A stretch of 64,000 nt of DNA from Porphyromonas pasteri (GTDB lineage Bacteria > Bacteroidota > Bacteroidia > Bacteroidales > Porphyromonadaceae). Of this stretch, positions 39,405 through 59,643 are shown piece by piece. The DNA lies in the NCBI RefSeq assembly GCF_014647755.1, contig NZ_BMPU01000006.1:48973-112972 (forward strand). The letters run 5' to 3'. The translations under genes and the position numbers were made by a program. The notes beneath the pieces are model-generated. The model made no database searches, was not told the origin of the DNA, and saw only the letters and a program-made list of their open reading frames with translations. Numbering within the stretch: position 1 is the first letter of the stretch; each line of letters begins with the position of its first letter.

Positions 39405-39721
39405 GAGACTGCTTCGGAGAGTCCTACCCTCTATTTATTCTGCTAAGGCATCGCACGCCCAGCTCCCCGATATACCCCTCCGAAGTGATACGCTTTTCCC
39501 TTCGCCTTATCGTGAGTATTCCTCTTATCCAGCGGAGGGGAAAGCGTCATTCCCGTGAAGAAAAAAGCACCTTCTCGCAGTGGTTTTCCTCTGTCTATGT
39601 ACGTAGTCTTAAAGACCAGGCACGTCAATCCAAATATCCACGTACGTAGATTTATCGTCCACGCACGTAGCCCAAACTTATCTGCCACTCGTCCACAACT
39701 TTTATCCCTACGCGGACCAAC
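39405..39721 (-). mobile_element. MITE-like repeat body, copy B (reverse orientation)
   Basis: This is the reverse complement of the bodies at 49195 and 59326, about 317 bp long and full length. Its inner end reads GTTGGTCCGCG on the minus strand (one change from GTTGCTCCGCG). Its outer end (39405) reads GAGACTGCTTCGGAGAGTCC on the plus strand, corresponding to the GCAACAGTCTC terminus of the other copies with two changes. It contains the ACGTACGTGG motifs and the TCTTTAAGAC block. Open frames across it are not conserved between copies. Confidence 0.9.
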
Positions 39722-39783
39722 AACCCAATGTAGGTCACGCCACAAAGCTATATAGGTTGATATCACCCTCCTATAGAGCTTTG
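39722..39783 (-). repeat. 22-bp palindromic repeat array 5 (3 units, reverse orientation)
   Basis: Read on the minus strand: units with cores GCTCTATAGG, CCTATATAGC and CCTACATTGG at 22-23 bp spacing. The last merges directly into the GTTGGTCCGCG start of repeat body B, in the same phase as arrays 1, 6 and 7. Confidence 0.8.
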
Positions 39784-39851
39784 GCGATCGATAAGCCACA
39801 CCCAGCACTCCTTACCCGATGTACCACCCTCACCCACAGCATAAGAAGAAA

Positions 39852-39886
39852 GGCAGGCCGACCCACAGACAGTGGGCCGGCCCGCC
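39852..39886 (-). terminator. Terminator of the SusC/SusD operon
   Basis: GGCAGGCCGACCCAC pairs with GTGGGCCGGCCCGCC (one wobble and one mismatch), 28 bases past the stop codon of the last operon gene. On the minus strand it is followed by TTTCTTCTTATGC. Confidence 0.8.
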
Positions 39887-39913
39887 AGGGGAATGAGCAA
39901 GAATGAGTGTGTG

Positions 39914-41020
39914 CTATTTCTTCGTCAGCGAGAACTCAAGGATCGTGTGGATCCCCGTAGTCCCTGAGTAGGCACTCTTATAGCTACCACCCTCAAAGAG
40001 GAAGAAGTGCAGGCCGTGATGCCCTCGAGTCTTCCCAGCTTCCGAGGGAGCGAAGGGGAAGGCGGGGTGCTCAATAGACACCGCATCCCACGTAGCGGAG
40101 TAGGTGTAGTCGGCAGCCCACGTCAGGTCGCCCGTAGCCTTGCCATTGGGACCTGGGAACCAGCCGGCATACGAAGCGAGGATGAGCGATGCCGTCACGC
40201 CCTGGGGCTTCGCGAGCTCCTGTGGCTTGATGGTCAGCGTATTCGTCTTCTCTTCGAAGGCTACTGGGATATCAGCAGCCAGCCCCTGCAGGATGAAGGC
40301 CTTCTTAGCTTGGTCAGCGATGAGCTTGACATCCGCCGTCTTCGTCTCACCCTTATAGGTGGAGATATAGGTCAGCGTATAGTCGCCGAGCACCGCATCG
40401 TAGCCGAGCGGACCATAAGACTGTATCAGGCGGAAGCTCTTACTGTAGAGCTCACTCAGCTTCAGCGTGAGGTTAGCCTCGCGCTGGAAGACGTTTGTGC
40501 TCTCGACTGTGAGGAGGAGCTTCTTACCCTCGACCTTGAAGGACGCCCATTCAGGCAGCCCCTCGATCTTGACCGCACTGGGACGGATGTCCCCGACGAG
40601 CGTGATCTCGATGGTGCCACCCTTACGCTCGATGGTGTAGGCTGACTCCAGGTCGGAGACGTAGCTATAGGCACCGAGCTGGGAGATGGCTACCTGCTGG
40701 GTCTCGTCGCCTCGCGTGAGGGTGATGAGGCCCGTGCGAGTCGTGGGCTCAGTGAAGGGTGCGACGGTGAAGGTAACCTTCGTACTCTCGGTAGCGCCAA
40801 GGGTGATCCAGCTGGCCTCCGACTTCGCGGTGAAGCCTCCTTCGGCGAGCGTGATCGTCCCCGTCCCACCTGCAGCAGTGAAGTTGTGCTCAGAGGAGAG
40901 GACACGTAGCGTGTGCTCGGTCTTCGTAGCAGGGTCGTCCTTGCGGCAGGAGCTGACACCTACGAGGAGCGTAAGCGAAGCCAGGAGGAGCGCCCCGAGC
41001 GAGCGATGTATGATCTTCAT
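39914..41020 (-). CDS. BACON-domain lipoprotein, last gene of the SusC/SusD operon
   Basis: A 368-residue lipoprotein (lipobox VSSC, Cys25). An N-terminal immunoglobulin-like BACON domain (about 38-118) is recognisable from FTAAGGTGTITLAEGG, SWITLGAT and the closing QQVAISQLG, and a second, weaker beta-sandwich repeat follows (about 120-195). The C-terminal half (about 200-368) is a calycin-like beta domain containing GDYTLTYISTYKGE and GWFPGPNGKATGD, of no family I can name. BACON domains are common in Bacteroidetes surface lipoproteins and are thought to contact glycans, mucin or the protein surface. Given its operon, it is probably an accessory binding protein on the cell surface. Confidence 0.82.
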   Translation of the reverse strand: MKIIHRSLGALLLASLTLLVGVSSCRKDDPATKTEHTLRVLSSEHNFTAAGGTGTITLAEGGFTAKSEASWITLGATESTKVTFTVAPFTEPTTRTGLITLTRGDETQQVAISQLGAYSYVSDLESAYTIERKGGTIEITLVGDIRPSAVKIEGLPEWASFKVEGKKLLLTVESTNVFQREANLTLKLSELYSKSFRLIQSYGPLGYDAVLGDYTLTYISTYKGETKTADVKLIADQAKKAFILQGLAADIPVAFEEKTNTLTIKPQELAKPQGVTASLILASYAGWFPGPNGKATGDLTWAADYTYSATWDAVSIEHPAFPFAPSEAGKTRGHHGLHFFLFEGGSYKSAYSGTTGIHTILEFSLTKK

Positions 41021-41029
41021 ATCTCTTAC

Positions 41030-42355
41030 TTATTTCTTAGTGAATACGGGCGAAGTGAAGCGAGAGTCACCGAAGGACTTGTATTCGCCACCACCGGGCT
41101 TCCAAAGGATATAGGAGCCTGCTATGAATGTACCCCAGATACCATTATCGACCAGCTTATAGCGCTTGCCCGTAGTATAGGTCTCATCGAGCTTGCTATA
41201 CATACCGAAGCCTGTGCCCCACGAGAGGTTGGTACCATTAGGAGCAGCCCACACCGCGAGGAAGGCACCACCCGTATTCTCGAGCTTCTGCGTCTTGATC
41301 TCAAAGCGATCCTTAGCAGCGTCGTAGGTAGCGTAGATCGTGAGGTTGGGCGCCATACCCGTGATACGATAGAGGTTGCGTGCAGCCTGCGAGAAGGTGA
41401 CGGTGCGAGGCGCCGTCCAGCCCGTGCACATCAGGTCATACTCACCGAGATAGTGAGCGAAGCCAGCGTAGTCGGGGTCGGTACGTGCCGTGAGCTTCTC
41501 ACCCGCAGGGGTGTTGTAGCTCTTATCTGCATCCTTCCACAGCAGCGTAGAGACGCCGTTGTACTCCTTGTGGAACTGCAGTCCATCAGGCGTGTAGACG
41601 TAGGGGACCTCCGTCTTCTTGCCCGTCTCAGCATCCTCGATGGTGAGGATGTTGTATCCCTCATTATTGAGGTAGGCCACGACGGCCTTGCCTCCGAGCT
41701 TACCCGTCAGACCGTAGAGGTGCTGCTGGTACATACTCTCCGAGGTATAGGCACGAGACTTCAGGTCGAGGACCTTCGCAAGATATTCCTTAGCAGCTAC
41801 CTGCGGGCGGAACATGCGCATGACGACACCCGTCTTACGGCCCTTCAGATAGAGCGTATCGGGCGAGACCGAGCGAACGAAGGTGAACTCATAGTCGCCC
41901 TCGAAGCTCTTCCCTTCGCCAGCCCCGTAGGACTTATCGGGGTCAGAGAAGAGGTGCAGAGGTGAGCTATACGTATCGAAGCTCAGCGAGACCATCTTGT
42001 CGGACTTCAGATGGTAGTTGCTCTTGACCTCTGCCGTAGAGTGGCCCTTCACGGGAGCATCCGAAGCCATGAGCACTTCGTTCTTAGCACCGAAGGTCAT
42101 CGTCACGGGATAGCCCCCGTAGAGGAGCTGGGTGTGAGGATAGTACTCCAGCACCCAGCCCGTGGAGGAGGCGGTGAGGGTCTTCTGCAGCTCAGAGGTG
42201 AGTGCATCGACACGCTCCGAAGCGGACTTCTCAAAGAGTGCATCAGGCTCCTGACGACATGAGGGAAGTACCCCGAGGACAAGGCCCGCAGCAGCGAGGA
42301 GACCAAGACGGGCACCCTGCAGGACAGCCCGCCCTATCGCTATATTCTTATTCAT
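41030..42355 (-). CDS. DUF4302 family lipoprotein
   Basis: A 441-residue lipoprotein (lipobox LPSC, Cys33) recognised as DUF4302 from SASERVDALTSELQKTLTAS, GWVLEYYPHTQLLYGGY and the overall beta-rich sequence. DUF4302 genes usually sit in SusC/SusD operons beside a zinc metallohydrolase lipoprotein, exactly as here. The function is unknown. Gaps to its neighbours are 9 and 28 bases, indicating one transcript. A surface role in capture or processing of the imported substrate is likely by context. Length and frame are intact. Confidence 0.85.
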   Translation of the reverse strand: MNKNIAIGRAVLQGARLGLLAAAGLVLGVLPSCRQEPDALFEKSASERVDALTSELQKTLTASSTGWVLEYYPHTQLLYGGYPVTMTFGAKNEVLMASDAPVKGHSTAEVKSNYHLKSDKMVSLSFDTYSSPLHLFSDPDKSYGAGEGKSFEGDYEFTFVRSVSPDTLYLKGRKTGVVMRMFRPQVAAKEYLAKVLDLKSRAYTSESMYQQHLYGLTGKLGGKAVVAYLNNEGYNILTIEDAETGKKTEVPYVYTPDGLQFHKEYNGVSTLLWKDADKSYNTPAGEKLTARTDPDYAGFAHYLGEYDLMCTGWTAPRTVTFSQAARNLYRITGMAPNLTIYATYDAAKDRFEIKTQKLENTGGAFLAVWAAPNGTNLSWGTGFGMYSKLDETYTTGKRYKLVDNGIWGTFIAGSYILWKPGGGEYKSFGDSRFTSPVFTKK

Positions 42356-42383
42356 CGTAGTCTATGAATTAGGGGGTCTGACA

Positions 42384-43457
42384 TTAGTGGAAGTACTGGG
42401 TGATGACCTGGCACTTAGCGTGGTCTGCATGCTCACCCGTGTGAAGCTCGAGGAACTTCGGGTGGCGCATCAGCTCCTCGACGACAGCGTCGCGAGCAGC
42501 CTCGTAGCCAGCGAGCGAGCGGGCAGCCTGTGGCAGGCTATGGAGCGAAGAGCCGAGAAGCTCCTGCCAAGAGCTCTCGATGAGCGGCAGACGGCTCACC
42601 TCCTCGAGGCGACGCTGGGCGATAGCACGGAGCTGATCCATGTCGATACCCCACGTACCCTTCATGTACTTCTTGATGATCTCCATCTTCTTATTGAGCT
42701 TCGCACGACCTTCGTCACCAGCGGCATTCATCACCGCATCCCACTGACTCTGGGGGAAGGTGATGTAGCAAGCCGTCATCTCAGCGATATCCTCGCGAGG
42801 CTGACTGCTGGCGTAAGCCGTGATGAAGCCCAGAGGAGCGTAGTCGCTGAGGCTACGGCGGTTGAACCACGAGGTGGGAGCATAGCCCTCAGAGATGGCG
42901 TCGTACTCCGTCGTAGGCCAGATCTTATTCTGGTGAAGGATGTGGCTGAACTCATGGTGCATGACCTTGAAGAAGGTCGTATTGAGCGACTGAGGATCGT
43001 TCACGTTGAGCCAGTTTGCCTGATAGAGCGTGACCTTCAGCCCACCCTCGGCCGTACCTTGGGTGATCGTGCCGTCGCCGTTCCACGAAGCCGAGCCGAC
43101 GATGAAGAGCTGACGGGGGGACGTCTTGCGCATGAAGTCGACACGCCCCGTGGCTTCATCATAGGCGCCATACCATGCGTGCTGGATGATCTTAGCGAGC
43201 TTCATGCTGTTCTCGAGCTTGGCAGGCGCGAGGTTGCGTGAGCGGTCGGCCTCGATATCATCCAGGGTATAGATATAGCTGGCGTTGTACGCGTCGGTAT
43301 AGTTCTCTTTGAGCCAGCGGTCGAAGCTCGTCATCTCCTTGGCGGGAGCCTTGGTGACACGACGAGAGGGATCGGGCTGGTCGCTATCCTTACACCCACC
43401 GAGTGTAGCCACGAGAAGGGCTGCACAGAGGGAGAGCTTGATCTTATGTAGATACAT
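42384..43457 (-). CDS. Substrate import-associated zinc metallohydrolase lipoprotein
   Basis: A 357-residue surface lipoprotein (lipobox LGGC, Cys22) of the gluzincin type. The zinc motif HHEFSHILHQ has H168, catalytic E169 and H172, and an E in REDIAEMTA (E222 or E226) may supply the third ligand. This combination, encoded directly after susD, matches the family named for its association with TonB-linked import. It is predicted to cut a protein, peptide or other polymer outside the cell before uptake by the SusC/D pair, but its substrate is unknown. It overlaps no neighbour and lies 29 bases after susD. Confidence 0.88.
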   Translation of the reverse strand: MYLHKIKLSLCAALLVATLGGCKDSDQPDPSRRVTKAPAKEMTSFDRWLKENYTDAYNASYIYTLDDIEADRSRNLAPAKLENSMKLAKIIQHAWYGAYDEATGRVDFMRKTSPRQLFIVGSASWNGDGTITQGTAEGGLKVTLYQANWLNVNDPQSLNTTFFKVMHHEFSHILHQNKIWPTTEYDAISEGYAPTSWFNRRSLSDYAPLGFITAYASSQPREDIAEMTACYITFPQSQWDAVMNAAGDEGRAKLNKKMEIIKKYMKGTWGIDMDQLRAIAQRRLEEVSRLPLIESSWQELLGSSLHSLPQAARSLAGYEAARDAVVEELMRHPKFLELHTGEHADHAKCQVITQYFH

Positions 43458-43486
43458 AGTTTCTGATCTGATAAGGGGGTTCGTGT

Positions 43487-45040
43487 CTAATACCCAGGGT
43501 TGGGCTCTACGCCTACCGAGCGGATGCTGGCAGGGATCTGGAGGGCACGGCGATGGTCGTCGGTCTTGAGCGTCATCGTCTCGCCCGTGTAGAGCTTGTG
43601 GGTGATCTCGATGCCGTAGCGCTTGATATCATCCCAGCGCGTACCATCGTGCATGCTGAGGATACGGCGGGCATGGAGGACGGCGTGCATCATATTCGTC
43701 TGCATACCTGCAGCGATGTCGAACTTAGGATGCAGGGGCTTGGAGACCGTCTCTTGCTTGCGGATCATCGCCTCGCGTACATCGTCGGGATCGGTGGGAT
43801 TGATGACGACGTTGTAGTAGTCCGAGATCTGCTGAGCTGTAGCAGCCTGTCCCTTCTTAGAGACGTACCAAGCGGAGAGGTCGCTGGCAGCACCGTCGAA
43901 GTCGGAGAGCATCACGCGGGCCTCAGCTCTCCACAAGAGGACGCGGTCCACCGTGAAGGGAAGCGCCACGACGTGGGGCTGACCCGTGCGGGCCACGACG
44001 TCGGTGATCTCGAAGAGCTCACGATACTTGGGGTAGTAGAGTGCGCCATTATTCGAGCCGAAGAGGCGGTCGTAGACGGGGAAGTAGCCTCCCCATGGGC
44101 CTGGGCTACGATAGGTCTGCGTCGAAGCGACATGCCCATTGTGAGCATAGCGGTAGGACGTCAGCGCACGGATCCAGAGCGAGCGGGTGACGATGAGCAT
44201 AAGGTTAGCAGGCTCGTCATCGCGGATATAAGCATTACAGATCTCATCGGCGTTGGTCAGCTTGTCGTACTTCGACATATCACGCAGATTGGAGACGGCA
44301 CCTGTGCCGAGCACTTCGTCAGCATACTGCTTGGCCTTGTCCCACTTCTCGTAGTAGAGGTAGAACTGCGTAGCGAAGGCCTTCGCTGCTCGCGTCGTGA
44401 AGTGGAAGATGGGCTTGCTGTAGCGGTCGTCATTGATCAAGGGAATACCCTCCTCGATGTCCTTAGCGATGAGCTCGTAGACCTTCGCCACAGAGAGGCG
44501 GGGTACGGCACGCTCGAGCTTCGTCTCGGGCTTCGTGAAGTAAGGGATACCGAGATCCTTGTCGCTGGTGCGGCCGTTGTAGGCCTGACCGAAGACATTG
44601 ACCCAAATGAAGTTGGTATAGGCACGGCAGAGGAGCGCTTCACCGCGGGCGGACTCCAGCTCCTTGGGGTTGCCGAGTTCTTCGATGGACTTCAGAGCTT
44701 GGTTGGCAGTACCGACTATGCTGTAGCAGGTACTCCAGAAGTTCGTCTCATCATCCCAGGCCGTTCCGCTGGAGGGTTCCCAGAAGAAGGCTTCGTGATT
44801 GCCAATATGGCTATCCTCGAAGAGGCGGCCGTTGTCCTCGACGTTGTCGGTACGGTTCTCCGTGAAGCCCATAGGCAGGAGCGTCGGATAAGCCGAGACG
44901 AGGAGGCGCTCGATCTTGTCAGCGCGGTTGAGCTCTGTACGGGTATCGGGCATGGTATCCAGGTAGCGATTGCAGCTACCGAGGGCGCCTGCCAGGAGGC
45001 AGAGGCCTGCCATTCTATATAGTCGTTTCATAGTGTACAT
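43487..45040 (-). CDS. susD: RagB/SusD-family nutrient-uptake lipoprotein
   Basis: A 517-residue surface lipoprotein that caps the SusC transporter and captures the substrate. The lipobox is LGSC (Cys23); the real start may be Met4 (MKRLYRMAGLCLL). SusD hallmarks are the N-terminal LDTMPDTRTELNRADKIERL, the helical tetratricopeptide-like segments (YSIVGTANQALKSIEELGNP, SARGEALLCRAYTNFIWVNV), and a C-terminal region ending IRSVGVEPNPGY. It follows susC by 15 bases. The companions (zinc metallohydrolase, DUF4302, BACON) suggest a protein- or peptide-type substrate, as for RagA/RagB of P. gingivalis, more than a polysaccharide. That is an inference: no glycoside hydrolase is present in the operon. 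Confidence 0.94.
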   Translation of the reverse strand: MYTMKRLYRMAGLCLLAGALGSCNRYLDTMPDTRTELNRADKIERLLVSAYPTLLPMGFTENRTDNVEDNGRLFEDSHIGNHEAFFWEPSSGTAWDDETNFWSTCYSIVGTANQALKSIEELGNPKELESARGEALLCRAYTNFIWVNVFGQAYNGRTSDKDLGIPYFTKPETKLERAVPRLSVAKVYELIAKDIEEGIPLINDDRYSKPIFHFTTRAAKAFATQFYLYYEKWDKAKQYADEVLGTGAVSNLRDMSKYDKLTNADEICNAYIRDDEPANLMLIVTRSLWIRALTSYRYAHNGHVASTQTYRSPGPWGGYFPVYDRLFGSNNGALYYPKYRELFEITDVVARTGQPHVVALPFTVDRVLLWRAEARVMLSDFDGAASDLSAWYVSKKGQAATAQQISDYYNVVINPTDPDDVREAMIRKQETVSKPLHPKFDIAAGMQTNMMHAVLHARRILSMHDGTRWDDIKRYGIEITHKLYTGETMTLKTDDHRRALQIPASIRSVGVEPNPGY

Positions 45041-45055
45041 GATCCTATTGCATGA

Positions 45056-48000
45056 TTAGAAGCCAATGTGCACCGTAGCCGTGACCTGCTTAGGCAGCGG
45101 AGCAGCTACCCCACCCGAGCGGAAGAACTCAGGGTCTTGGCCATAGAGCTTCTTATCGGCGTACAGCAGAGCGAGGTTCGTGGCCTGCACCTTGAAGGAA
45201 GCACTCTTGAGGAAGCCCAGGCGCTTGATGAGAGGCGTAGGCAGCGTATAGGTCAGTGAGACCTCCTTGAGGCGGATGAAGCTACCATCAGCGACACGAG
45301 CCGTAGAGTAGTTGTAGGCTGCATAGCCCGTACCGAGGTTGGAGTAGCTGTAGTGGTCGCGTACCGAGGCGATGACAGGGATATCCGTCTTACGCTCATC
45401 TCCGAGGGTCGTCCAGCGATTGCGGTATTCCTTAGGCGTAGCCCAGAGGTCGGAATAGGAAGCATAGAAGGAAGGATCCAGGCGGAGCTTGTTACCACCC
45501 GAGTAGGTGATGAAGACGTTCAGCTTGAAGTTCTTGAACGTGAAGATATTCCCGAAGCTACCATTGTAGGTAGGCTCTGACGAACCCTCATACTTGAGGA
45601 AGTCCAGATCATCGACCTGCTGGAAGTTGATATCACGATAGTTGCGACGCGTGACTTCCTTCCCGTTGACCATAAAGGTGGGGAAGCCCTCATCATCGAG
45701 CCCTGTGAAGGGGATCGAGAAGAGCGAACGTACGGGATAGCCCTGACGAGCGAAGCCGTTACCGGTGAGGAAGTTGAACATATTGCGCTTCGTATCGAGC
45801 TCAGTGACCTTATTGAAGGTCGAGCCGAAGATGAAGTCCGTCGTCCAGCTAAAGTCCTTCGACTGGATATTCTTCGTCGATACGGAGAGCTCGAAGCCGT
45901 GGCTCTTCATCGAAGCGACGTTGCCCCAGCGAGTCCCCCCGATGGTATAGGCTGCACCGATGAGGTCGAAGTTGTTACGCCAGTAGATGTCAGCAGCGAT
46001 GTTGAGGCGGTTCTTCAGCAGACCCATATCGACACCGAAGTTCAGCTCATGCTTCTTCTCATAGGTGAGGTCTTCGTTCTCGAAGCTACCGATGTAGTTA
46101 CGGTTCTCCGACTGCCCAGCCGAGGGTCTCCAGGCCGCGCGGCTATAGATGATGGCGCGGGAGTTGGTGACCCAGCTGGGGGCAACCCCTACGAGGGAGT
46201 ATGAGCCCTTGAGCGTCAGGTGTGAGAGGAGGTGCTGCTTCTCGAAGAAGTCTTCGCTGTGGGCGTTCCATGCACCAGAGATATTCCAAGTGGGGAGCCA
46301 GCGAGCCTTGCGTGTGCGACCGAGTCTATTCGTCCCTTCATAGCGGGTCGTACCCGTGATCGTATAGCGGCCCTTGTAGGAGTAGGTGGCATTGGCGAAG
46401 AAGGCGACCGAGCGGCCGAAGCTCTTCGACAGGCCGTAGTAATCCCAGTTCTTCTCCGTGAGGCGCTTGAAGGCGCGGTAGTCCCAGAAGGGCGTCAGAC
46501 CACTGTCGTACTGCATACCCCAGCCGTCCATCCAGCGCGAGACGCGGTCCTGTGAGTTGACTTCGGAGCCGAGGTAGGTATTGATGATGTGGTCGTTGTT
46601 GAGCGTCGTATTATACGTAGCAGAGGCACGGAAGTCATAGCTCTCCATGGTGCGCGTCTGCGTATTGTAGAAGCCCCCAGCAGGGAGGATGGTCTCAGGC
46701 AATGAGTTGGGCTTATCCTGATCCTTCCAGAGGTACTGGTTGCCATTGCGTACGGTAGCATCCTGCATAGCGCGGAAAGCGAGTGCGCGGTTGGCATACT
46801 CCGTGACGATGCTCTCCATCGTCGTACCCGAGTCCTTGTAGGCACCGAGCAGAGCGAGAGTCAGCCCCTTGATGGGCTTCCACTTCAGCTCGAGCTGGAG
46901 CTTGACATCCTTCACACCGAGGTCGATATAGTTGTTGTCGAGCTCGTGCTTGATATTGAAGGGAGCGTAGTCACGGGTGTAGAACTCATTGGGGTCGAGC
47001 GTGCGGCTCGTATTGAGCGCGTAGGAGAAGGGGTTGATGTCGAAGCCACGTGACACCTCACCAGTAGTGGCGTTAGCATCCTGAGTGACCGTACCTGGAG
47101 CACGCTGCATACGTGAGGAGAGGTTGATCAGGGCAGATACTGAGAGCTTGGGCGAGAAGGTATAGGTAGCGTTGAGGTTCCCCGTGTAGCGGCGTACGTT
47201 GCTGGCACGCATCCATCCTGGGTCGAGCATAGCCGAGACGGATACATAGGTCTGGAGGTTCTTCGTCCCCCCTGAGAAGCTCAGTGAGTGATTCTGAATG
47301 AGGGAGGGAGAGAAGAGTTCGCCGAACCAGTTGGTATTGCGCATCTCTGCATCGCGGAGGTAGTTAGCACGAGCCTCGGGCGTGTTCTCCAGCCCGAAGA
47401 TCCCCGTCGTGGGGTCGTAGTCGTGCGTCAGGTGGTACATCTTCCCGTAGATACCTGAGGAGCTGTAGTTGTAGACGCGGGCAAAGTTCAGCCAGCCCTT
47501 ACGCTCCATCTCGTTGTAGACCTCCATCTGGTCCTGCGAGTTCATGATATTGTAGTCGCGGTAGCTGGGCACAAAGCGCGAGGTGAACTCCCCCGTATAG
47601 GAGAAGGAGCTGCTACCCGAGCGACCCTTCTTCGTCGTGATGACGATGACCCCTGCCATAGCCTTTGCCCCGTAGATGGACGTTGCCGAGCCGTCCTTGA
47701 GGATCTGGAAGCTCTCGATATCGTCGGCATTGAGGCCTGCGATAGCCGAGCTGAGGAGTGTCGTAGCGTCCCCTGAGCTGAGGTCATCAGCGCCGACGTC
47801 GACGACATCCTCCTGGATGACCCCGTCGACGACCCAGAGGGGCTTGGACGAACCCATGATCGAGGTCGCCCCACGCACGCGGATCTTAGGTGCTGTACCG
47901 AAGGTCCCCGAGAGGTTCTGCACGGAGACCCCTGCGGACTTCCCTTCGAGACCGCGGCTGATGTCAGCCATACCTGCCATCTTCACCTTGTCGGCCTTGA

Positions 48001-49050: not shown

Positions 49051-49194
49051 AACCTATAGTGGTCGGCGAGTGAACCACTATAGGTTTGCAGTAGCAACCA
49101 CTACTGGTCCGACGCTGAACCAGTAGTGGTCGGTGAGCGAACCAGTAGTGGTCAGAGCCGCGACCAATACTGGTCGGATGAGTGACCACTACTG
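49051..49194 (+). repeat. 22-bp palindromic repeat array 6 (7 units)
   Basis: Units begin at 49051, 49073, 49096, 49118, 49140, 49162 and 49184. Cores are CCTATAGTGG, CCACTATAGG, CCACTACTGG, CCAGTAGTGG (twice), CCAATACTGG and CCACTACTGG. The last unit leads directly into repeat body C. Confidence 0.92.
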
Positions 49195-49517
49195 GAGACT
49201 GTTGCTCCGCGTAGGGATAAAAGTTGTGGACGAGTAGCAGATAAGTTTGGACTACGCACGTGGCTCTAATATCTCCGTACGTGGATATTTGGATTTACGT
49301 GCCTGGTCTTTAAGACTACGTACATAGATAGAAGAATACCACTACGGGAAGACGCTTTTTTCTTCACGAGAACGATGCTTTTCCCTCGGCTGGATAAGAG
49401 GAATACTCGCGATAAGGTGAAGGACTTGCGTATCTCTTCGGAGAGGCATATCGGGGAGCTGGGTGCGCGACGCCTTAGCACTCTAAATAGAGGACAGGAC
49501 TCTGCCGCAACAGTCTC
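49195..49517 (+). mobile_element. MITE-like repeat body, copy C with terminal inverted repeats
   Basis: This is the best-preserved copy, 323 bp including termini. GAGACTGTTGC at 49195-49205 is the exact reverse complement of GCAACAGTCTC at 49507-49517. The 7-base sequence CTACTGG stands immediately on both sides of the AGACTGTTGC/GCAACAGTCT core, as expected for a target duplication, and on both sides it belongs to a 22-bp repeat unit. It is 85-90% identical by eye to copy D. No protein is encoded. Confidence 0.9.
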
Positions 49518-49557
49518 TACTGGTTGCGTCCACCCCTCCGAGCGAGTAGCAAAAACA

Positions 49558-53185: not shown

Positions 53186-53476
53186 CTACCGCCCATCATC
53201 GGATGGGAGCTGGAGCGTCCAGCCCGTGTGGCTGTTGAGTTCCTGCTGTAGGAGGGTGAGGCTATCAGCCTCGAGAGGTGCCCCTTCACTCAAGGGGCAG
53301 GTGGGGGAAATGAGATGTATGGTACCTGAAAGGAATATCGTGCGCTCCCCTTCGCCGACGAAGGGAGCTAAGATGAAGCTCCCTGGCGAGTACTCCTCGA
53401 TGAGGACCGAGTGAGCGACCCAGCGCCCGAGGCGCAGGTGGTGGCTGGCATAGCGTGGCCGGGGTGCGAGGGACAT
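53186..53476 (-). CDS. Small hypothetical protein in the lspA-gltX cluster
   Basis: A 96-residue protein I do not recognise. It has no signal peptide or transmembrane helix. A beta-rich middle ([18 protein letters not shown], then [14 protein letters not shown]) precedes a helical segment ([18 protein letters not shown]) and an ending in [10 protein letters not shown]. Support for coding comes from its position: the same strand, 9 bases after the DUF4296 gene and 41 before gltX, with no room for another frame. There is no overlap with stronger frames. It could be a translated relic; codon-usage analysis would settle this. Confidence 0.55.
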
Positions 53477-53485
53477 ACGGAGTGA

Positions 53486-54361
53486 TTAGAGAGCCGTAGC
53501 GAAGTCATCGCCAGACAGCTCCGTTGCGGGCTCCTCAGCCTGAGGCTCGTCGGCTGGAGTGGGTGTAGGCTCGGGAGCTGCACCCGTATAGCGGACAAGG
53601 CTGAAGCTATCGACGACGAAGAGCGGGCTCTTGCTCTTGGGGAGGCGACCGCGCAGCAGCCCATAAGCCGCACGCATCGTCTTACCACTGGGTATGGTGA
53701 TGGCGACTTGGTTGAGGCCAGGATGTAGGGAGGGAAGGGTCTCGGCTTGCTGCGTAGAGTCCGCATACTGCAGGCGGAGCTGGAGCTGAAGTGCCGAGGG
53801 AGATGCCCCGCTTACACGGACGATGAAGCGGAGCTCCGTACCGCTCGTATAGCTGACGCTGGGCTCGAGAGCGAAGGAGCGCTCGACGTAGCTCCCTGCG
53901 AGGTAGCGGCTAGCACTATCACGCAGGAGGTTCACCGAGTCAATATCGTGCGCCTCCCACAGGCTGCGACGTCGCTCGATGCGGTCAAGGCTATCGACAC
54001 GTACCTGCAGCGTCGCTTGGCGGGACTCCAGCACCAGAGCAGCGTGCTCATAGAGCTTCTGATACTCGACGATCTGATGCCGTCCGTACCAGACGAGCGA
54101 GCTATCCCAGTCTGCCAGCGTATAGCCGTAGCGGCTAAGGATGGCTTGGAAGCCAACGATACGCAGGCTATCCTCGAGGCCTCGCTGGTTGAAGGAAGCC
54201 TCTGCCGTGAGCATCTCAGGCAGGAGTTCCTTGACCGTCTTGAGGTCGATCTGCTTCCACTTCCCCTTAGAGCCACCGCAGGCACTCCCCCCGACAAGGA
54301 GAAGCGCCAGCACGAGGGCCTTCAGTAGGCTGCGATGGGGCAGGGTGAAGCGAGACGACAT
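53486..54361 (-). CDS. DUF4296 domain lipoprotein
   Basis: A 291-residue lipoprotein (lipobox GSAC, Cys28) with an N-terminal DUF4296 domain (about 40-140: KELLPEMLTAEASFNQRGLE, then ILSRYGYTLADWDSSLVWY), which is helical. A second beta-sandwich-like domain (about 150-255) follows, then a Pro/Glu-rich tail (PTPTPADEPQAEEPATE). The family is typical of Bacteroidetes and nearly always next to lspA, as here (17 bases away), which suggests an envelope role. No enzymatic function is known. The C-terminal extension beyond DUF4296 is larger than in many family members that I recall. Confidence 0.82.
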   Translation of the reverse strand: MSSRFTLPHRSLLKALVLALLLVGGSACGGSKGKWKQIDLKTVKELLPEMLTAEASFNQRGLEDSLRIVGFQAILSRYGYTLADWDSSLVWYGRHQIVEYQKLYEHAALVLESRQATLQVRVDSLDRIERRRSLWEAHDIDSVNLLRDSASRYLAGSYVERSFALEPSVSYTSGTELRFIVRVSGASPSALQLQLRLQYADSTQQAETLPSLHPGLNQVAITIPSGKTMRAAYGLLRGRLPKSKSPLFVVDSFSLVRYTGAAPEPTPTPADEPQAEEPATELSGDDFATAL

Positions 54362-54378
54362 AGGGCAAGACGACTAAG

Positions 54379-55047
54379 CTATTCCTCCGTATCAGTCTCC
54401 GTAGACGTATCCTTATCCTTTGCAGGGAAGAGGGTATCCAGCGCCGTGGAGAACGTGCGGCGATAGCAGAGGAGCAGGAGCGCCACACCTACAGAGATGC
54501 AGGCATCAGCGAAGTTGAATATCGGACTGAAGAAGACGAACTGCTCACCGGAATGGATAGGACTCCACGAGGGGTAAGTCGTCTGGATGATGGGGAAGTA
54601 AAGCATATCGACCACCTTGCCATGCAGGAAGGTGCCGTAGCCTTCGCCCCAGGGGACGAGCTGTGCCACTACCCCGCGGCTCGTGGAGAAGATCTCCCCG
54701 TAGAAGAGGCAGTCGATGACGTTCCCAAGTCCACCAGCGATGACGAGACCAAGCGTCAGGCAGAAGCCGAGAGAGAAGCGGCGCAGGCGCAGCAGACGCA
54801 CCAGATAGTACACCCCTGCACCCATCGCCAGTATACGGAAGAGCGTCAGAAGGAGCTTACTACCGAGCGTGATCCCGTAGGCCATCCCTTCGTTCTCGAC
54901 GAAGTAGATCTTGAACCACGAGGTGATCTCGTGCATCTCCCCCTCGACCATCGAAGTCTTGACCCAGATCTTCGAGGCCTGGTCAATGACGAGTAGGAGG
55001 ACGATAAACGCCGTCGTCCAGAGGGCCGTCTTGGAGCTTCTTGTCAT
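54379..55047 (-). CDS. lspA: Lipoprotein signal peptidase II
   Basis: A 222-residue inner-membrane aspartyl protease that cuts signal peptides from prolipoproteins; this window alone encodes at least eight lipoproteins as clients. The two catalytic Asp residues are D112 (GGLGNVIDCLF) and D181 (FNFADACISVGV), and four transmembrane helices are visible. At 222 residues it is longer than the roughly 165-residue E. coli enzyme because of an insert between the two Asp motifs (about 118-172, with GEGYGTFLHGKVVDML) and a C-terminal tail (DKDTSTETDTEE). This insert is usual in Bacteroidetes. It lies 15 bases after the DksA-like gene. Confidence 0.95.
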   Translation of the reverse strand: MTRSSKTALWTTAFIVLLLVIDQASKIWVKTSMVEGEMHEITSWFKIYFVENEGMAYGITLGSKLLLTLFRILAMGAGVYYLVRLLRLRRFSLGFCLTLGLVIAGGLGNVIDCLFYGEIFSTSRGVVAQLVPWGEGYGTFLHGKVVDMLYFPIIQTTYPSWSPIHSGEQFVFFSPIFNFADACISVGVALLLLCYRRTFSTALDTLFPAKDKDTSTETDTEE

Positions 55048-55062
55048 CAGTCGCGTGGGGGC

Positions 55063-55446
55063 TTACTTCTTCTCTTGGAGCTTCGCCTCGATAGAGAGCG
55101 TAGCATGAGGCACAGCGCGCAGACGCTCCTTGGGGATGAGCTTACCGGTCTGGCGGCAGATGCCGTAGGTCTTGTTCTCGATGCGGCGCAGGGCTGCCTG
55201 GAGATTGTGGATGAACTTCAGCAGACGCTCAGCCATACGACCTGCTTCACCCTTGGAGAGGGAAGCAGCGCCCTCATGGACTGCCTTGAAGGTGGGCTGT
55301 GTGTCGGCTACGTCATTGCTCTGATAGTCGACGGCACTCTCACGCAGGAGATCGTAATCGCGGATAGCTTGCTCGAGCTTCTGCATGATAAGCTCACGGA
55401 ACTCCTGGAGCTCCTCGTCTGTGTAGGAAGTCTTCTGGTCACTCAT
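55063..55446 (-). CDS. DksA/TraR-family protein with degenerate zinc finger
   Basis: A 127-residue protein of the DksA/TraR type, which modulates RNA polymerase through its secondary channel. A helical coiled-coil N-terminal part (about 10-95) precedes the zinc-finger segment YGICRQTGKLIPKERLRAVP (about 97-116). Only the first of the four finger Cys residues is kept; the others are replaced (CxxT, then no CxxC pair). The Asp/Ala tip residues of true DksA are not obvious. This Cys-poor form is widespread in Bacteroidetes. It lies 57 bases downstream of ileS and may be separated from it by the hairpin at 55468. Confidence 0.9.
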   Translation of the reverse strand: MSDQKTSYTDEELQEFRELIMQKLEQAIRDYDLLRESAVDYQSNDVADTQPTFKAVHEGAASLSKGEAGRMAERLLKFIHNLQAALRRIENKTYGICRQTGKLIPKERLRAVPHATLSIEAKLQEKK

Positions 55447-55467
55447 TGTATAGTTATCTGAATTATA

Positions 55468-55497
55468 GGCAGGGCGGAAGAGTACACCCGCCCTGCC
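55468..55497 (-). terminator. Hairpin between ileS and the dksA-like gene
   Basis: GGCAGGGCGG pairs with CCGCCCTGCC around a 10-base loop, starting 6 bases after the ileS stop codon, with TATAATTCAG following on the minus strand. It could end or attenuate the ileS transcript. No promoter for the dksA-like gene fits in the remaining 20 bases, so read-through is probably needed. Confidence 0.5.
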
Positions 55498-55503
55498 CGT
55501 GTG

Positions 55504-58500
55504 TTAGTTTGCCTTCTCTATATAGATGGGGATCATACGTTCGTCCAGATCAAGCTCCAGCGTGGGTGTGAAGCCTGTCTGCTGCTCGATGGAGACAGCC
55601 TGCACCTCCTTAGCGATGTAAGCCGAGTAGACGCTGAGCACACGGTGGAGCTCTTCGTCCTCGGGCAGGAGGATGCGTACCTTGTCACTGACCTCGAAGC
55701 CGCTCTGCTTACGCAGGTTCTGAATGCGGTTGATCAGCTCACGAGCCGTACCCTCGAGGCGCAGCTCATCGGTCACGGTGATATCCAGAGCGATGGTCAG
55801 CGTGCCTTCGTTGGCCACGAGCCAGCCAGGGATATCCTCTGAATAGATGTCGACGTCGTCGCGGAGGATCGTCACAGGCGCCCCTTCGACTGTGAAGTCG
55901 ATCTGACCAGTGCGCTCGATCGTAGCGATCTCGTCCTGCGTGAACTCTGCCACCACAGCAGCGATAGCCTTCATGATCTTGCCATAGCGTGGGCCGAGCT
56001 TCTTGAAGTCGGGCTTGATACGCTTGACGAGCACGCCTTCGCCGTCGGTGACGAACTGCAGTTCCTTGAGGTTCACCTCACTGAGGATGAGGGGCACGAC
56101 GGGCAGGATAGCCTGATGGTCGGCCTCGTTGACGATGGGGATCATCAGACGCTGCAGGGGCTGACGCACCTTGATATTGACCTTACGACGCAGGGCCAAC
56201 ACCATCGAGCAGATGCTCTGTGCCAGGTGCATACTGCGCTCCAGGCTCTCGTTGATCTCCTCTCGGCAAGCGGTGGGGAAGTCAGCCAGATGCACTGAGT
56301 GCTCCGTAGCATTCGTACCCTTGCTGGTGAGGTCGCGGTAGAGCTGGTCAGCGTAGAAGGGAGCGATGGGCGCCATGAGGCGAGCCACCGTGACCAGACA
56401 GCGGTAGAGCGTCTGGTAGGCGGAGAGCTTATCCGTGGTCATCTCACCAGCCCAGAAGCGGCGGCGAGAAAGGCGCACGTACCAGTTGCTCAGCTGCTCG
56501 GAGACGAAGTCGCCGATAGCACGAGCGGCACGCGTAGGCTCGTAGTCCTCCAGATCGCTATCGACCTCGAGGATGAGGCTATTGAGTGTAGAGAGGATCC
56601 AGCGGTCGATCTCGGGGCGCTCAGCGTAAGGGAGCTCCTCACGAGCCGTAGGATCGAAGCCATCGAGGTTCGCATACAGCGCGAAGAACTGATACGTATT
56701 GTACAGCGTCGCGAAGAACTTGCGGCGTACCTCATCGATACCCTCGACGTCGAACTTCAGGTTGTCCCAAGGCGACGAGTTGCTGATCATATACCAGCGC
56801 AGGGGGTCAGAGCCATACTTCTCGATCGTCTCGAAGGGATCGACAGCATTGCCCAGACGCTTACTCATCTTGTTGCCATTCTTATCGAGCACGAGCCCGT
56901 TAGAGATGACCGCCTTGTAGCTATTCGTACCACGTACCATCGTAGCGATAGCGTGGAGCGTGAAGAACCACCCACGCGTCTGGTCCACCCCTTCGGCGAT
57001 GAAGTCCGCGGGGAAGGCACGACCGCTGTCGAGCAGTTCCTTATTCTCAAAGGGATAGTGGAGCTGTGCGAAAGGCATAGCACCCGAGTCAAACCACACG
57101 TCGATGAGGTCCGTCTCACGACGCATGGGCTTGCCCGAGGGTGAGACTAAGATGATATCATCGACATAGGGGCGGTGCAGGTCGATCTTATCGTAGTTCT
57201 CCTGCGTATATACCCCTGGGGTGAAGTCCTTCCAGGGGTTAGCCGTCATGAAGCCAGCTTCTACCGAGCGCTCGATGGCGTGGTAGAGCTCTTCGACGGA
57301 TGAGATACAGATCTCTTCACGACCATCCTCGGTGCGCCAGATAGGCAGAGGCGTACCCCAGTAGCGGCTACGCGAGAGGTTCCAGTCCTGGAGGTTCTCC
57401 AGCCACTTACCGAAGCGACCCGTACCGGTGCTCTCGGGCTTCCAGTTGATGGTATCATTGAGGCGCATCATCTCCTCACGGCAAGCCGTGGTGCGGATGA
57501 ACCAGCTATCCAGCGGGTAGTAGAGTACGGGCTTGTCCGTACGCCAGCAGTGGGGATAGGAGTGCACGTGCTTCTCGATCTTGAAGGCACGACCCTCGCC
57601 CTTCAGCAGCAGTGCGATAGTCACATCCAGCGTCTCATCCTGATCGGTGAGCGTGTCGTCGTAGGCGTTCTTGACGTAGCGCCCCGCGAACTCCTTATAT
57701 ATATCTACGTTGACAAAGTCCTTGACGAAGGCGGGATCCATATCCTCCAGACGGAAGAGACGGCCCTGCATATCGACCATGGGGCGCACATTGCCATCAC
57801 GATCGAGGACGGTCAGCCCTGCGATGTCGCTGGCCTTAGCCACCTTGTTGTCGTCCGCACCGAAGGTAGGTGCGATATGCACGATCCCCGTACCATCGCT
57901 CGTGGTGACGAAGTCGCCAGCGATGACGCGGAAGGCATCCCCATCGGGACGCATCCAGGGGAGGAGCTGCTCATAGCGCATGCCTACGAGGTCCTTACCC
58001 TTCCACTCGCCGACGATGACGTAGGGGAGCTTCTTGTCACCAGGCTGATAGGCTGCGAGGGCTTCTTCGCCTTCGTGCTCCTTGCTGAAGAGCGTATGCA
58101 GGAGTGCACGAGCTACCACGGCCGTGATAGGCGCACCCGAATAGGGGTTGAAGGAGCGGACGGCTACGTAGTCGATCTCAGGACCGACGCAGAGAGCCGT
58201 ATTCGAGGGTAGCGTCCAGGGGGTCGTCGTCCAAGCGAGGAAGACGGCTTCACCATGGCCCGTCAGCTCAGCACGTGGGTCGATGATGCGGAACTGTGCG
58301 ACACACGTCGTGTCCTTCACATCACGATAGCACCCAGGCTGATTCAGCTCGTGCGTGCTCAGCCCCGTACCTGCAGCAGGCGAATAGGGCTGGATCGTGT
58401 AGCCCTTATAGAGGAGGCCCTTCTTATAGATCTCGCTGAGGAGGTACCAGAGGGTCTCGATATAGCGGTTGTCGTAGGTGATATAGGGGTGATCCACGTC

Positions 58501-58932
58501 CACCCAGTAGCCCATGAGGCGGGTGAGCTGCTCCCACTCCTGCGTGTACTTCATCACCTCACGGCGACAAGCAGCATTGTATTCGTCGACGCTGATCTTC
58601 TTGCCGATATCTTCCTTCGTGATGCCGAGAGCCTTCTCGACCCCGAGCTCTACGGGCAGACCGTGGGTATCCCAGCCGGCCTTGCGGTCGACGCGGAATC
58701 CCTTCATCGTCTTGTAGCGGCAGAAGATATCTTTGATCGAGCGCGCCATGACGTGGTGAATACCAGGCATCCCATTAGCCGAGGGAGGCCCTTCGTAGAA
58801 GACGAATGAGGGCGCGCCTTCGCGCAGGGCAAGCGTGCGGGCAAAGAGGTCTTCCTCCTGCCACTGATCCAGTACCTTCTTATTGACCCCCGAGAGCTGG
58901 AGGTTATCGTATTCAGGGAACTTATGGCTCAT
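55504..58932 (-). CDS. ileS: Isoleucine--tRNA ligase
   Basis: An 1142-residue class I aminoacyl-tRNA synthetase. The HIGH-type motif lies in PPSANGMPGIHHVMAR (about 50-65) and the KMSKS motif is KNGNKMSKRLGN (about 690). The CP1 editing domain contains the usual TTPWTLPSNTALCVG (about 236). At about 1140 residues and with this HIGH context it belongs to the long, eukaryote-like ileS type typical of Bacteroidetes, which in other organisms is associated with natural mupirocin resistance; that property is not shown here. The first gene of the cluster, it has a TATCTTTG promoter element 85 bases upstream. Repeat element D lies beyond that. Confidence 0.96.
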   Translation of the reverse strand: MSHKFPEYDNLQLSGVNKKVLDQWQEEDLFARTLALREGAPSFVFYEGPPSANGMPGIHHVMARSIKDIFCRYKTMKGFRVDRKAGWDTHGLPVELGVEKALGITKEDIGKKISVDEYNAACRREVMKYTQEWEQLTRLMGYWVDVDHPYITYDNRYIETLWYLLSEIYKKGLLYKGYTIQPYSPAAGTGLSTHELNQPGCYRDVKDTTCVAQFRIIDPRAELTGHGEAVFLAWTTTPWTLPSNTALCVGPEIDYVAVRSFNPYSGAPITAVVARALLHTLFSKEHEGEEALAAYQPGDKKLPYVIVGEWKGKDLVGMRYEQLLPWMRPDGDAFRVIAGDFVTTSDGTGIVHIAPTFGADDNKVAKASDIAGLTVLDRDGNVRPMVDMQGRLFRLEDMDPAFVKDFVNVDIYKEFAGRYVKNAYDDTLTDQDETLDVTIALLLKGEGRAFKIEKHVHSYPHCWRTDKPVLYYPLDSWFIRTTACREEMMRLNDTINWKPESTGTGRFGKWLENLQDWNLSRSRYWGTPLPIWRTEDGREEICISSVEELYHAIERSVEAGFMTANPWKDFTPGVYTQENYDKIDLHRPYVDDIILVSPSGKPMRRETDLIDVWFDSGAMPFAQLHYPFENKELLDSGRAFPADFIAEGVDQTRGWFFTLHAIATMVRGTNSYKAVISNGLVLDKNGNKMSKRLGNAVDPFETIEKYGSDPLRWYMISNSSPWDNLKFDVEGIDEVRRKFFATLYNTYQFFALYANLDGFDPTAREELPYAERPEIDRWILSTLNSLILEVDSDLEDYEPTRAARAIGDFVSEQLSNWYVRLSRRRFWAGEMTTDKLSAYQTLYRCLVTVARLMAPIAPFYADQLYRDLTSKGTNATEHSVHLADFPTACREEINESLERSMHLAQSICSMVLALRRKVNIKVRQPLQRLMIPIVNEADHQAILPVVPLILSEVNLKELQFVTDGEGVLVKRIKPDFKKLGPRYGKIMKAIAAVVAEFTQDEIATIERTGQIDFTVEGAPVTILRDDVDIYSEDIPGWLVANEGTLTIALDITVTDELRLEGTARELINRIQNLRKQSGFEVSDKVRILLPEDEELHRVLSVYSAYIAKEVQAVSIEQQTGFTPTLELDLDERMIPIYIEKAN

Positions 58933-59017
58933 ACAGCGTCTATATTATATCGTCGTCGGGAGGAGCGGCGGGCCGAGTGCGGCTACACCCCATCCCAAGG
59001 TAGTTCAAAAATTGATA

Positions 59018-59025
59018 CAAAGATA
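59018..59025 (-). promoter_or_regulatory. -7 promoter element for ileS
   Basis: Minus-strand TATCTTTG, a full TAnnTTTG match, about 85 bases before the ileS start. Confidence 0.6.
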
Positions 59026-59108
59026 CAGCTTTCCATCGACGCAGATTCTATGCGTGCCATCCGACCTCCCCGCACCTCCCACCTCTCTATAGAAGTAACG
59101 TAAAAGAG

Positions 59109-59157
59109 AGCGCCCCCACGTAGTGTGTACCATAGATACACGCTACGTGGGGGCGCT
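59109..59157. terminator. Orphan hairpin upstream of ileS
   Basis: AGCGCCCCCACGTAG and CTACGTGGGGGCGCT form a 15-bp stem that continues with TGTGTA/TACACG-type pairing. It is followed on the plus strand by GGTTTATAATA, like the plus-strand terminators in this window, yet no plus-strand gene precedes it and no minus-strand gene ends nearby. Confidence 0.65.
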
Positions 59158-59244
59158 GGTTTATAATACGTAGAGACCATTGCGCAAGGCCACCTCTTCA
59201 CAGCTTACACAATGGTCTCAGAATAGGTATATGGTGCGAGGGTA

Positions 59245-59325
59245 GAGCTATATAGGATGGCTAAGAAAGCTATATAGCTTTGGACTGATTCCTATATAGC
59301 TTTGTGAAGTGACCTATATTAGGTT
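59245..59325 (+). repeat. 22-bp palindromic repeat array 7 (4 units)
   Basis: Units start at 59245, 59267, 59289 and 59311, exactly 22 bp apart, with cores GCTATATAGG, GCTATATAGC, CCTATATAGC and CCTATATTAGG. The last runs into repeat body D. Confidence 0.9.
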
Positions 59326-59643
59326 GTTGCTCCGCGTAGGGATAAAAGTTGTGGACGAGTGGCAAATAAGTTTGGTCTACGTACGTGGCTCTAATATCTA
59401 CATACGTGGATATTTGGATTTACGTGCCTGGTCTTTAAGACTACGTGCGTAGATAGAAGAATACCACTAAGGGAAGACGCTTTTTTCTTCACGAGTAGGA
59501 CTCTTTTTCCTCCGCTGGATAAGAGGAATACGCGCGATAAGGCGAAGGACTTGCCCGATCACTTCGGAGAGGCATATCGGGGAGCTGGGCGTGCGAAGCC
59601 TTAGTACTCTACATAGAGGGCAGGACTCTGCCGCAACAGTCTC
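59326..59643 (+). mobile_element. MITE-like repeat body, copy D
   Basis: A full-length 318-bp copy beginning GTTGCTCCGCGTAGGG and ending GCAACAGTCTC. It is highly similar to copy C throughout, including the two ACGTACGTGG-type motifs 21 bp apart, the TCTTTAAGACTACG block, CGGAGAGGCATATCGGGGAG and the terminal CAGGACTCTGCCGCAACAGTC. A degenerate repeat unit (AACAACTATTGCTTCG) follows directly. No plausible protein. The remaining 59644-59735 holds nothing recognisable. Confidence 0.9.

What the first reader, a model, noticed from the sequence alone, without database searches (positions are those of the whole stretch)
39405..59643. A dispersed composite element: 317-bp non-coding body fused in fixed phase to the 22-bp repeats
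Four copies of the same body (A 3446-3682 truncated, B 39405-39721 reversed, C 49195-49517, D 59326-59643) all have a 22-bp array on their GTTGCTCCGCG side. In all four the junction falls at the same point of the last unit (core then GTTGTTGCTCC or a close variant). The array and body therefore travel as one unit. It has no coding capacity and has inverted termini, which is the definition of a MITE. A MITE carrying a roughly 23-bp minisatellite, BrickBuilt, has been described in P. gingivalis. This could be its counterpart in another species or a new family.
Basis: partly seen in the sequence, partly recalled or inferred. Interest (0 to 1): 0.78.

Follow-up and report, generated by a model that had tools for sequence, protein, structure and literature searches.

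The report
Composite mini-transposon lodged in palindrome arrays
A Porphyromonas-like genome carries at least 90 copies of a short non-coding mobile DNA element that often sits in the centre of 22-base palindromic repeats and in some copies forms one unit with such a repeat block and a piece of an insertion sequence; it is likely moved by that insertion sequence's enzyme, and a sister species has repeats with a different core, in about half of the places compared at the same spots.

Summary
The 317-bp body has at least 90 copies in this 2.17-Mb genome; I examined 89. No match was found in the 25 other genus genomes held (E <= 0.001). It behaves as a MITE with 11-bp ends GAGACTGTTGC/GCAACAGTCTC. 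Two forms are visible: body alone (6 copies with the left end kept, 4 with exact 5-bp target duplications) and leader + 22-bp array + body (12 complete copies, 5 with exact 5-bp duplications; 0 of 20,000 permutations reach 5). Copy C reads as a body inserted into a pre-existing array unit (duplication TACTG), so array and body do not always travel together. Layout and ends resemble BrickBuilt of P. gingivalis; sequences do not. A structured RNA is not supported. The arrays are a larger phenomenon: 200 adjacent pairs of this core here, 0 in 25 relatives; a sister species has 209 pairs with a 23-bp period and another core, at the same intergenic place in 12 of 23 loci compared.

The parts
59173..59643 (+). 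Composite D: leader + 22-bp array + body (471 bp), outer ends GAGACCATTGCGC and GCAACAGTCTC; no target duplication kept
59173..59219 (+). Shortened leader of D (47 bp; full leaders elsewhere about 128 bp), ends GAGACCATTGCGCAAG and CTTACACAATGGTCTC
   Evidence: full leader matches the right end of the IS
59220..59325 (+). 22-bp palindromic units inside composite D (cores AGCTATATAGG, AAGCTATATAGCTT, CCTATATAGC, ACCTATATTAGGT)
59326..59643 (+). Body D (tail); left end degenerate (TAGGTTGTTGC), right TIR 59633-59643
49195..49517 (+). Body C, alone: left TIR GAGACTGTTGC 49195-49205, right TIR GCAACAGTCTC 49507-49517
49190..49194 (+). Target duplication TACTG, left copy, inside a 22-bp unit core
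49518..49522 (+). Target duplication TACTG, right copy; without body and one duplication the flanks read ACCACTACTGGT, an ordinary unit
49052..49194 (+). 22-bp array that reads as the target of body C
39405..39725 (-). Body B; right end GAGACTGCTTC (2 changes); degenerate array units on its left side (39726 to about 39790, by eye)
3443..3671 (+). Body A, right end missing; units 3366-3442 on its left side
12458..12558 (.). 22-bp array without body
17031..17198 (.). 22-bp array without body
25085..25295 (.). 22-bp array without body
63198..63298 (.). 22-bp array without body

Best explanation
This is a non-coding mobile element (a MITE) in at least 90 copies, found either as a body of about 320 bp alone or as a composite of leader, 22-bp palindromic array and body, and it is likely moved in trans by an IS5-family transposase of the kind encoded twice in the same genome. 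Shown: 11-bp ends GAGACTGTTGC/GCAACAGTCTC on body-only copies; composites bounded by GAGACCATTGC on the left and GCAACAGTCTC on the right; exact 5-bp target duplications on 5 of 12 complete composites and 4 of 6 body-only copies; leader sequence matching the right end of the IS; one third of right ends lying in the core of a 22-bp unit; 5-bp duplications at one of the two IS copies and at several related IS. Inferred: (i) a body inserted into the core of an array unit; (ii) its left end decayed from GAGACTGTTGC to TAGGTTGTTGC; (iii) a leader MITE derived from the IS right end landed on the far side of the array; (iv) the transposase then used the leader's outer end and the body's outer end, so the enclosed array units were amplified in fixed phase; (v) many copies lost the leader by recombination between array units, and the distal part of the body by deletion. 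The copies are not recent: complete bodies are on average 92% identical to the consensus, best pair 95%.
For: Copy number: 17-base core motif at 47+69 sites against 1+2 for the reversed-pattern control. Of the 100 sites listed, 88 lie in bodies and 12 in a second family; one further body was held, giving 89 examined (57 with the right end, 32 right-truncated, 1 of these also left-truncated); C4:56333 is a 90th, not fetched. TSDs: 5 of 12 complete composites match at exactly 5 bp, permutation mean 0.58, 0 of 20,000 reach 5; lengths 3, 4, 6 and 7 give 0, 1, 1 and 0. Body-only: 4 of 6, permutation mean 1.67, P = 0.035. Partner IS: two copies 93% identical, 1323 and 1325 bp, IS5-family transposase of 360 aa (NF033581, E 2.9e-69), TIR GAGACCATTGC; one copy has TSD TATAT inside an array unit. 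Related IS: G006 L099 TTCAG, G011 L098 TATTG and L112 AATAG, and the G011 copies start with GAGACTGTTGC. Leader vs IS right end: 72 bp at 89%, E 1e-22, plus 48 bp inverted at 83%. Landing: 19 of 57 right ends are followed by a half core against 120 of 18,582 control positions. Restriction: body in 0 of 25 other genus genomes. Non-coding: no reading frame is open in more than 4 of 57 complete copies.
Against: No transposition was observed, and no copies are near identical, so current activity is unproven. Seven of 12 composites and 2 of 6 body-only copies have no exact 5-bp duplication; nor does the second own IS copy, nor the related IS L113, nor L096 and L097 with the ends as printed. The exact search for the body's own end gave 35 sites: 29 right and 3 left ends of examined bodies, C4:56333 at the end of a further body, and two (C2:157511, C3:196374) not examined; I saw no IS with that end, but those two sites and inexact ends were not ruled out. 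Use of that end by the resident transposase is inferred from 9/11 similarity. 83 of 89 copies lack an intact left TIR next to the body, and 68 of 89 show no leader-like end within 600 bp, so leader loss is inferred. By eye, about 14 of the 25 'other' copies with differing upstream units carry the altered left end TAGGTTGTTGC or a variant of it, which a single-founder story does not explain neatly. True filled/empty site pairs within the species could not be examined.
Confidence: 0.78

Rival explanations
1. The body is a structured RNA gene or RNA regulatory family dispersed by duplication; the arrays are accompanying hairpins.
For: Alignment folding of the plus strand (25 of 57 copies) is somewhat better than column-shuffled controls (z -2.85); with all 57 copies it is -34 against -17 to -23 for 5 shuffles. 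The middle of the body is four palindromic units about 22 bp apart. The array-side part is more conserved (91% vs 85% pairwise) and was truncated in 1 copy against 32 on the other side.
Against: In the plus-strand consensus structure only 28% of changed cells keep pairing where the substitution spectrum predicts 38%, and paired positions vary more than unpaired ones; the minus strand gives 32% vs 34% and z -0.02. Two-sided changes: one cell each at 2 pairs. No Rfam family at gathering score in the bodies; best below-threshold match over D E 0.57. TSDs and TIRs are those of a transposable element.
Confidence: 0.07
2. Arrays and bodies spread by recombination or gene conversion between intergenic repeats, without a transposase; the 5-bp matches are remnants of the repeated units.
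For: Arrays occur without bodies; some truncated bodies end where the body resembles a unit core; body-only TSDs are alike (AATAT twice), which weakens their permutation test (P 0.035).
Against: Duplications CTTAT, CATTT and CCCTT on composites and CGTAG on a body-only copy lie outside perfect units, are exactly 5 bp and sit exactly at the TIRs. Several members of the IS family make 5-bp duplications.
Confidence: 0.1
3. It is BrickBuilt itself or a direct descendant of it in another Porphyromonas.
For: Same order (leader, 22/23-nt repeats, tail of about 318 nt), same class of ends (IS5-type GAGAC..TTGC), intergenic, distal deletions (PMC4596501, sections read).
Against: No match of the body or of the strict 22-bp pair pattern in any other genus genome held; no window match to the published 23-nt consensus at up to 3 mismatches; leader homologous to the local IS, whereas the paper reports no transposase remnant in BrickBuilt.
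Confidence: 0.05

Closest known systems
BrickBuilt MITE of Porphyromonas gingivalis (PMC4596501)
   Same: Leader + tandem 22/23-nt repeats + tail of about 318 nt; IS5-type ends; intergenic; distal truncations; variable repeat number
   Different: No nucleotide relation found; 22-bp palindromic units with core ACCNNTANNGGT (and related cores) instead of AGAYCATARTATCCTCTCRTRTG; at least 90 copies instead of 19; leader traceable to an IS right end; 5-bp target duplications where present, instead of 2, 4 and 5 bp; body also found alone
MITE464/PgRS and ISPg4 (ends GAGACTGTTGCA / CGCAACAGTCTC for ISPg4, table 2 of PMC4596501)
   Same: The body's ends GAGACTGTTGC and GCAACAGTCTC match the ISPg4 ends; PgRS differs by one base on the right
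   Different: PgRS carries 41-nt repeats; no IS with this end was seen in the present genome (exact search, two sites unexamined)
ISPg1-type IS5-family insertion sequences
   Same: Resident IS has end GAGACCATTGC, as table 2 of PMC4596501 gives for ISPg1 on the left; its right end is the likely source of the leader
   Different: Composite is non-autonomous, lacks a transposase, and has two different ends

Membership tests
MITE | Short, non-coding, multicopy | tested here: met
   complete bodies 315-328 bp; composites 471-666 bp by the offsets; no conserved frame; at least 90 copies
MITE | Terminal inverted repeats | tested here: met
   GAGACTGTTGC/GCAACAGTCTC, up to a few changes, on body-only copies; composites have related but unlike ends, GAGACCATTGC and GCAACAGTCTC
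MITE | Target-site duplications | tested here: met
   5 bp: 5 of 12 composites, 4 of 6 body-only copies
MITE | Related autonomous element | tested here: met
   IS5-family IS at C2:287572-288894 and C3:247356-248680; leader matches its right end. The body itself has no sequence relation to it beyond the ends
MITE | Empty sites in sister strains | tested here: inconclusive
   No body found in sister species; G012 has an array but no body at several orthologous intergenic places, but the flanks are too diverged for an exact empty site and one has an assembly gap
BrickBuilt | Leader, tandem repeats and tail in that order with IS5-type ends | tested here: met
BrickBuilt | 23-nt repeat of consensus AGAYCATARTATCCTCTCRTRTG | tested here: not met
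   0 matches at up to 3 mismatches in the window
BrickBuilt | Nucleotide homology of leader/tail to BrickBuilt | tested here: not met
   Body has no match in any of 25 other genus genomes, including G008, whose coordinates match P. gulae DSM 15663, reported to hold 4 BrickBuilt homologues (PMC4596501). BrickBuilt tails themselves were not in hand for a direct comparison
Structured RNA family | Compensatory base changes supporting a fold; Rfam match | tested here: not met

The most novel reading that the evidence does not exclude
The arrays, not the MITE, are the primary system. Hundreds of intergenic palindromic arrays keep their places between sister species while the core of the palindrome is rewritten genome-wide in each species: here ACCNNTANNGGT every 22 bp, ACCYACNGTRGGT every 23 bp in G012, ACCTATSATAGGT in P. 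catoniae, each with outer ACC/GGT and a 10-bp spacer. This would be the footprint of a fast-evolving DNA-binding system that co-evolves with all its sites at once, and the IS and MITEs use it as a landing pad.
Probability: 0.33. Interest if true: 0.88.

Novelty: new variant of a known kind. Interest (0 to 1): 0.62.

Why it matters
It suggests step by step how a minisatellite-bearing MITE can arise. A MITE lands in an array, a second MITE derived from a resident IS closes the other side, and the pair then moves as one. That makes the unexplained origin of BrickBuilt testable. The array system around it, with partly shared places but species-specific palindromic cores in hundreds of copies, would surprise a specialist and would let one ask what binds the arrays and how the sites change together.

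Tried and rejected
Structured RNA: alignment folding, column-shuffled controls and pair counts gave no clear support; Rfam gave none at threshold in the bodies. Own autonomous parent for the body: the exact end search gave 35 sites, 29 right and 3 left ends of examined bodies and 3 unassigned, of which one is the end of a body seen and two were not examined; body against IS loci of the genus and against the transposase gave only body copies. Presence in phages, plasmids, viral contigs: no match. Exact pattern in genome contigs: none, though the own record may be left out. Profile search of the body and of the second family in 440 kb of loci from relatives: nothing below E 2. An exact-palindrome array finder on relatives returned nothing because it was too strict; the arrays were then seen by eye, by TRF in two of the three loci scanned and by pattern. 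A first junction count (48 of 89) was wrong because of a bad anchor and was replaced. A script for composite lengths returned none because a field had not been saved; lengths are from the offsets. Paper searches for similar arrays: searches gave 0 papers; one search gave 1 unrelated paper; I saw listings only. These do not prove that nothing is in print.

Rows dropped before counts: of 15 copies with an outer leader-like end I used 12 for the TSD test; C1:551112 and C3:248681 lack the right end, and C1:891160 had only a 4-mismatch, doubtful leader end. C1:372319 was scored with its outer of two ends. 16 of 116 core matches were not listed by the tool; L017's body was held anyway, C4:56333 was seen but not fetched, the rest were not examined. 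Twelve low-scoring profile hits (10 sites) were set aside as a second family. Of 27 G012 array places listed, 23 were compared; C8:54899, C8:155867, C9:1993 and C10:400 were not fetched, and G012 places beyond the capped list were not seen.
Full report
Observation. The four copies are real. A search of the own genome with body D scored 40 copies at 87-100% identity, nearly full length (125 candidates at first look). A 17-base core motif with up to 3 mismatches occurs 47+69 times against 1+2 for the reversed control. I held or fetched stretches around the 100 listed places and scanned them with a profile built from 30 copies: 101 hits, of which 89 are bodies (57 with the right end, 32 right-truncated) and 12 hits at 10 sites are a diverged second family. 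88 of the 100 listed places lie in bodies and 12 in the second family; one body (L017) was not on the list, and C4:56333 is a 90th body that I did not fetch. So the body has at least 90 copies, and the 116 core sites less the second family suggest about a hundred at most. The 89 bodies sum to 26,180 bp, 1.2% of the genome. No reading frame is open in more than 4 of 57 complete copies.

Ends and target duplications. Six of 89 copies keep a left end GAGACTGTTGC (at most 1 change) next to the body; the right end is GCAACAGTCTC, with changes in some. Four of these six have an exact 5-bp duplication (AATAT twice, CGTAG, TACTG); permuting partners gives a mean of 1.67 because the targets are alike, P 0.035. 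C in the window is one of them. Taking away body C and one TACTG leaves ACCACTACTGGT, an ordinary array unit.

Composite. 58 of 89 copies have a shared array-side junction. 21 of 89 show a leader-like end (up to 4 mismatches) within 600 bp upstream; in full form the leader is about 128 bp, starts GAGACCATTGCGCAAG and ends CTTGCGCAATGGTCTC. Fifteen have the outer leader end; 12 of these, after dropping three (see Tried and rejected), also have the right end of the body. Five of the 12 show exact 5-bp duplications across the whole unit (CTTAT, ATATT, CATTT, ATATT, CCCTT). Permutation mean 0.58, 0 of 20,000 reach five; lengths 3, 4, 6 and 7 give 0, 1, 1 and 0. The composite therefore reads as a transposition unit of 471 to 666 bp (offsets). 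D is one, with a shortened leader and no duplication.

Partner IS. Pfam DDE_Tnp_1 finds 3 places in the own genome. Two are IS copies of 1323 and 1325 bp, 93% identical, with ends GAGACCATTGC and a 360-aa IS5-family transposase (NF033581). One sits in a 22-bp unit with duplication TATAT; the other lies in a body and shows no duplication. The leader matches the IS right end (72 bp at 89%, plus an inverted 48 bp at 83%), so I take it for a MITE derived from it. Of related IS copies with ends in view, L099 (G006), L098 and L112 (G011) have 5-bp duplications; L113 (G006) does not, nor do L096 and L097 with the ends as printed. The third place (L033) is an interrupted transposase gene.

Landing sites. 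19 of 57 right ends are followed by a half core (N0-3)TANNGGT, against 120 of 18,582 control positions.

Age and truncation. Complete bodies are 92% identical to the consensus and 87% pairwise; the closest pair is 95%. Truncation is one-sided: 32 on the right, and the single left-truncated copy is one of those 32 (binomial P 3e-5 under a uniform model over the detectable span, which counted it as one event on each side). Copies were found by a core motif in the middle, so larger losses are unseen. The BrickBuilt paper reports deletions from the distal ends of leader and tail.

Not an RNA family. Plus-strand alignment folding is slightly better than shuffled columns (z -2.85, 25 of 57 copies), minus-strand is not (-0.02); pairs in the plus-strand consensus structure are kept less often than expected (0.277 vs 0.383). 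Rfam finds nothing at threshold in the bodies.

Relatives. Body: 0 of 25 other genus genomes at E <= 0.001, some of them incomplete. Leader: own genome, IS-end or partial matches in G002 and G016, and one nearly full-length leader-like copy in G016 (78% over 1-123 of 128), so the leader MITE is not confined to this species. IS transposase relatives: 17 of 26 genomes, own included. G002 matches P. catoniae and G008 P. gulae by contig coordinates; other names are not known. The host is inferred to be a Porphyromonas near these.

Arrays. The strict 22-bp pair pattern occurs 200 times on each strand in the own genome and 0 times in 25 relatives, control 0 in own and 1 in G001 (the pattern is self-complementary, so the strands repeat each other). 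A 23-bp pattern occurs 209 times in G012 (core ACCYACNGTRGGT in most listed rows), 11 in G002 (9 of these 11 ACCTATSATAGGT), 1 each in own, G020 and G021, 0 in the other 21; control 1 in G014 and G018, else 0. P. catoniae also has a 22-bp array of CTATATAG cores, so the strict pattern does not see every array. At the metK-like gene beside B and the ileS-like gene beside D, G012 (90% and 84% identical there) has a 23-bp array and no body; G016 and G002 have neither that I saw. Gene names are mine from context. Of 23 G012 array loci chosen without regard to orthology (27 listed), compared with 134 own stretches, 12 have a flanking gene end that in the own genome also faces an array, body or second-family element on the same side; one matches on the other side, and ten show no such match. 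In two of the 12 the own feature is a second-family element. Two loci match on both sides. I had no formal control; by rough reckoning from the share of gene ends covered, 2 to 4 would be expected. Both features prefer long divergent intergenic regions, which could inflate this.

Comparison. Of PMC4596501 I read the outline and abstract, part 1 of the Results, the first part of section 7, section 9, and passages; of PMC10969869 passages only. The layout is BrickBuilt's; the sequence, the unit and the copy number are not. I file it as a new MITE family with BrickBuilt-like architecture.

Inference. The order of assembly (body into array, left end decay, leader insertion, joint mobilisation, leader loss) is inferred. 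That the resident transposase acts on the body end is inferred from similar ends and equal duplication length.

Noticed in passing
G000 C1, C2, C5 (10 sites, e.g. C1:229282, C1:848134, C2:228961): A second, diverged element family shares the palindromic middle of the body (four units like TCTACGTRCGTGG about 22 bp apart) with inverted arms but without the TIRs or the array; some lie upstream of promoter-like TAnnTTTG motifs (motif recalled, seen by eye).
   Followed up: partly
G012 (L224, L229, L241, L280-L299), G002 (L242, L245): Species-specific palindromic arrays with a 22/23-bp period in sister species, partly at the same intergenic places as here but with different cores.
   Followed up: partly
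G016 C1:2110385-2110506 (L243): A nearly full-length leader-like element (78%) in a sister species that has no body and no strict 22-bp array.
   Followed up: no
G000 C3:247356-248971 (L032, L140): One IS copy sits in a body; the rest of that body is missing on the other side, suggesting an adjacent deletion.
   Followed up: no
89 body copies: Of 69 copies with genes called on both sides, 32 lie between divergent genes, 35 between co-directional genes and only 2 between convergent genes; the null for intergenic length was not tested.
   Followed up: partly
57 complete bodies: Very few indels: 0.26 deletion openings per copy against about 25 substitutions per copy (insertions not counted).
   Followed up: no
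G000 C1:199542-199657 (L244): A leader copy (88%, 1-117 of 128) with no examined body nearby.
   Followed up: no
G000 C1:501190-501888 (L033): An interrupted transposase gene (DDE_Tnp_1 match with two stops).
   Followed up: no
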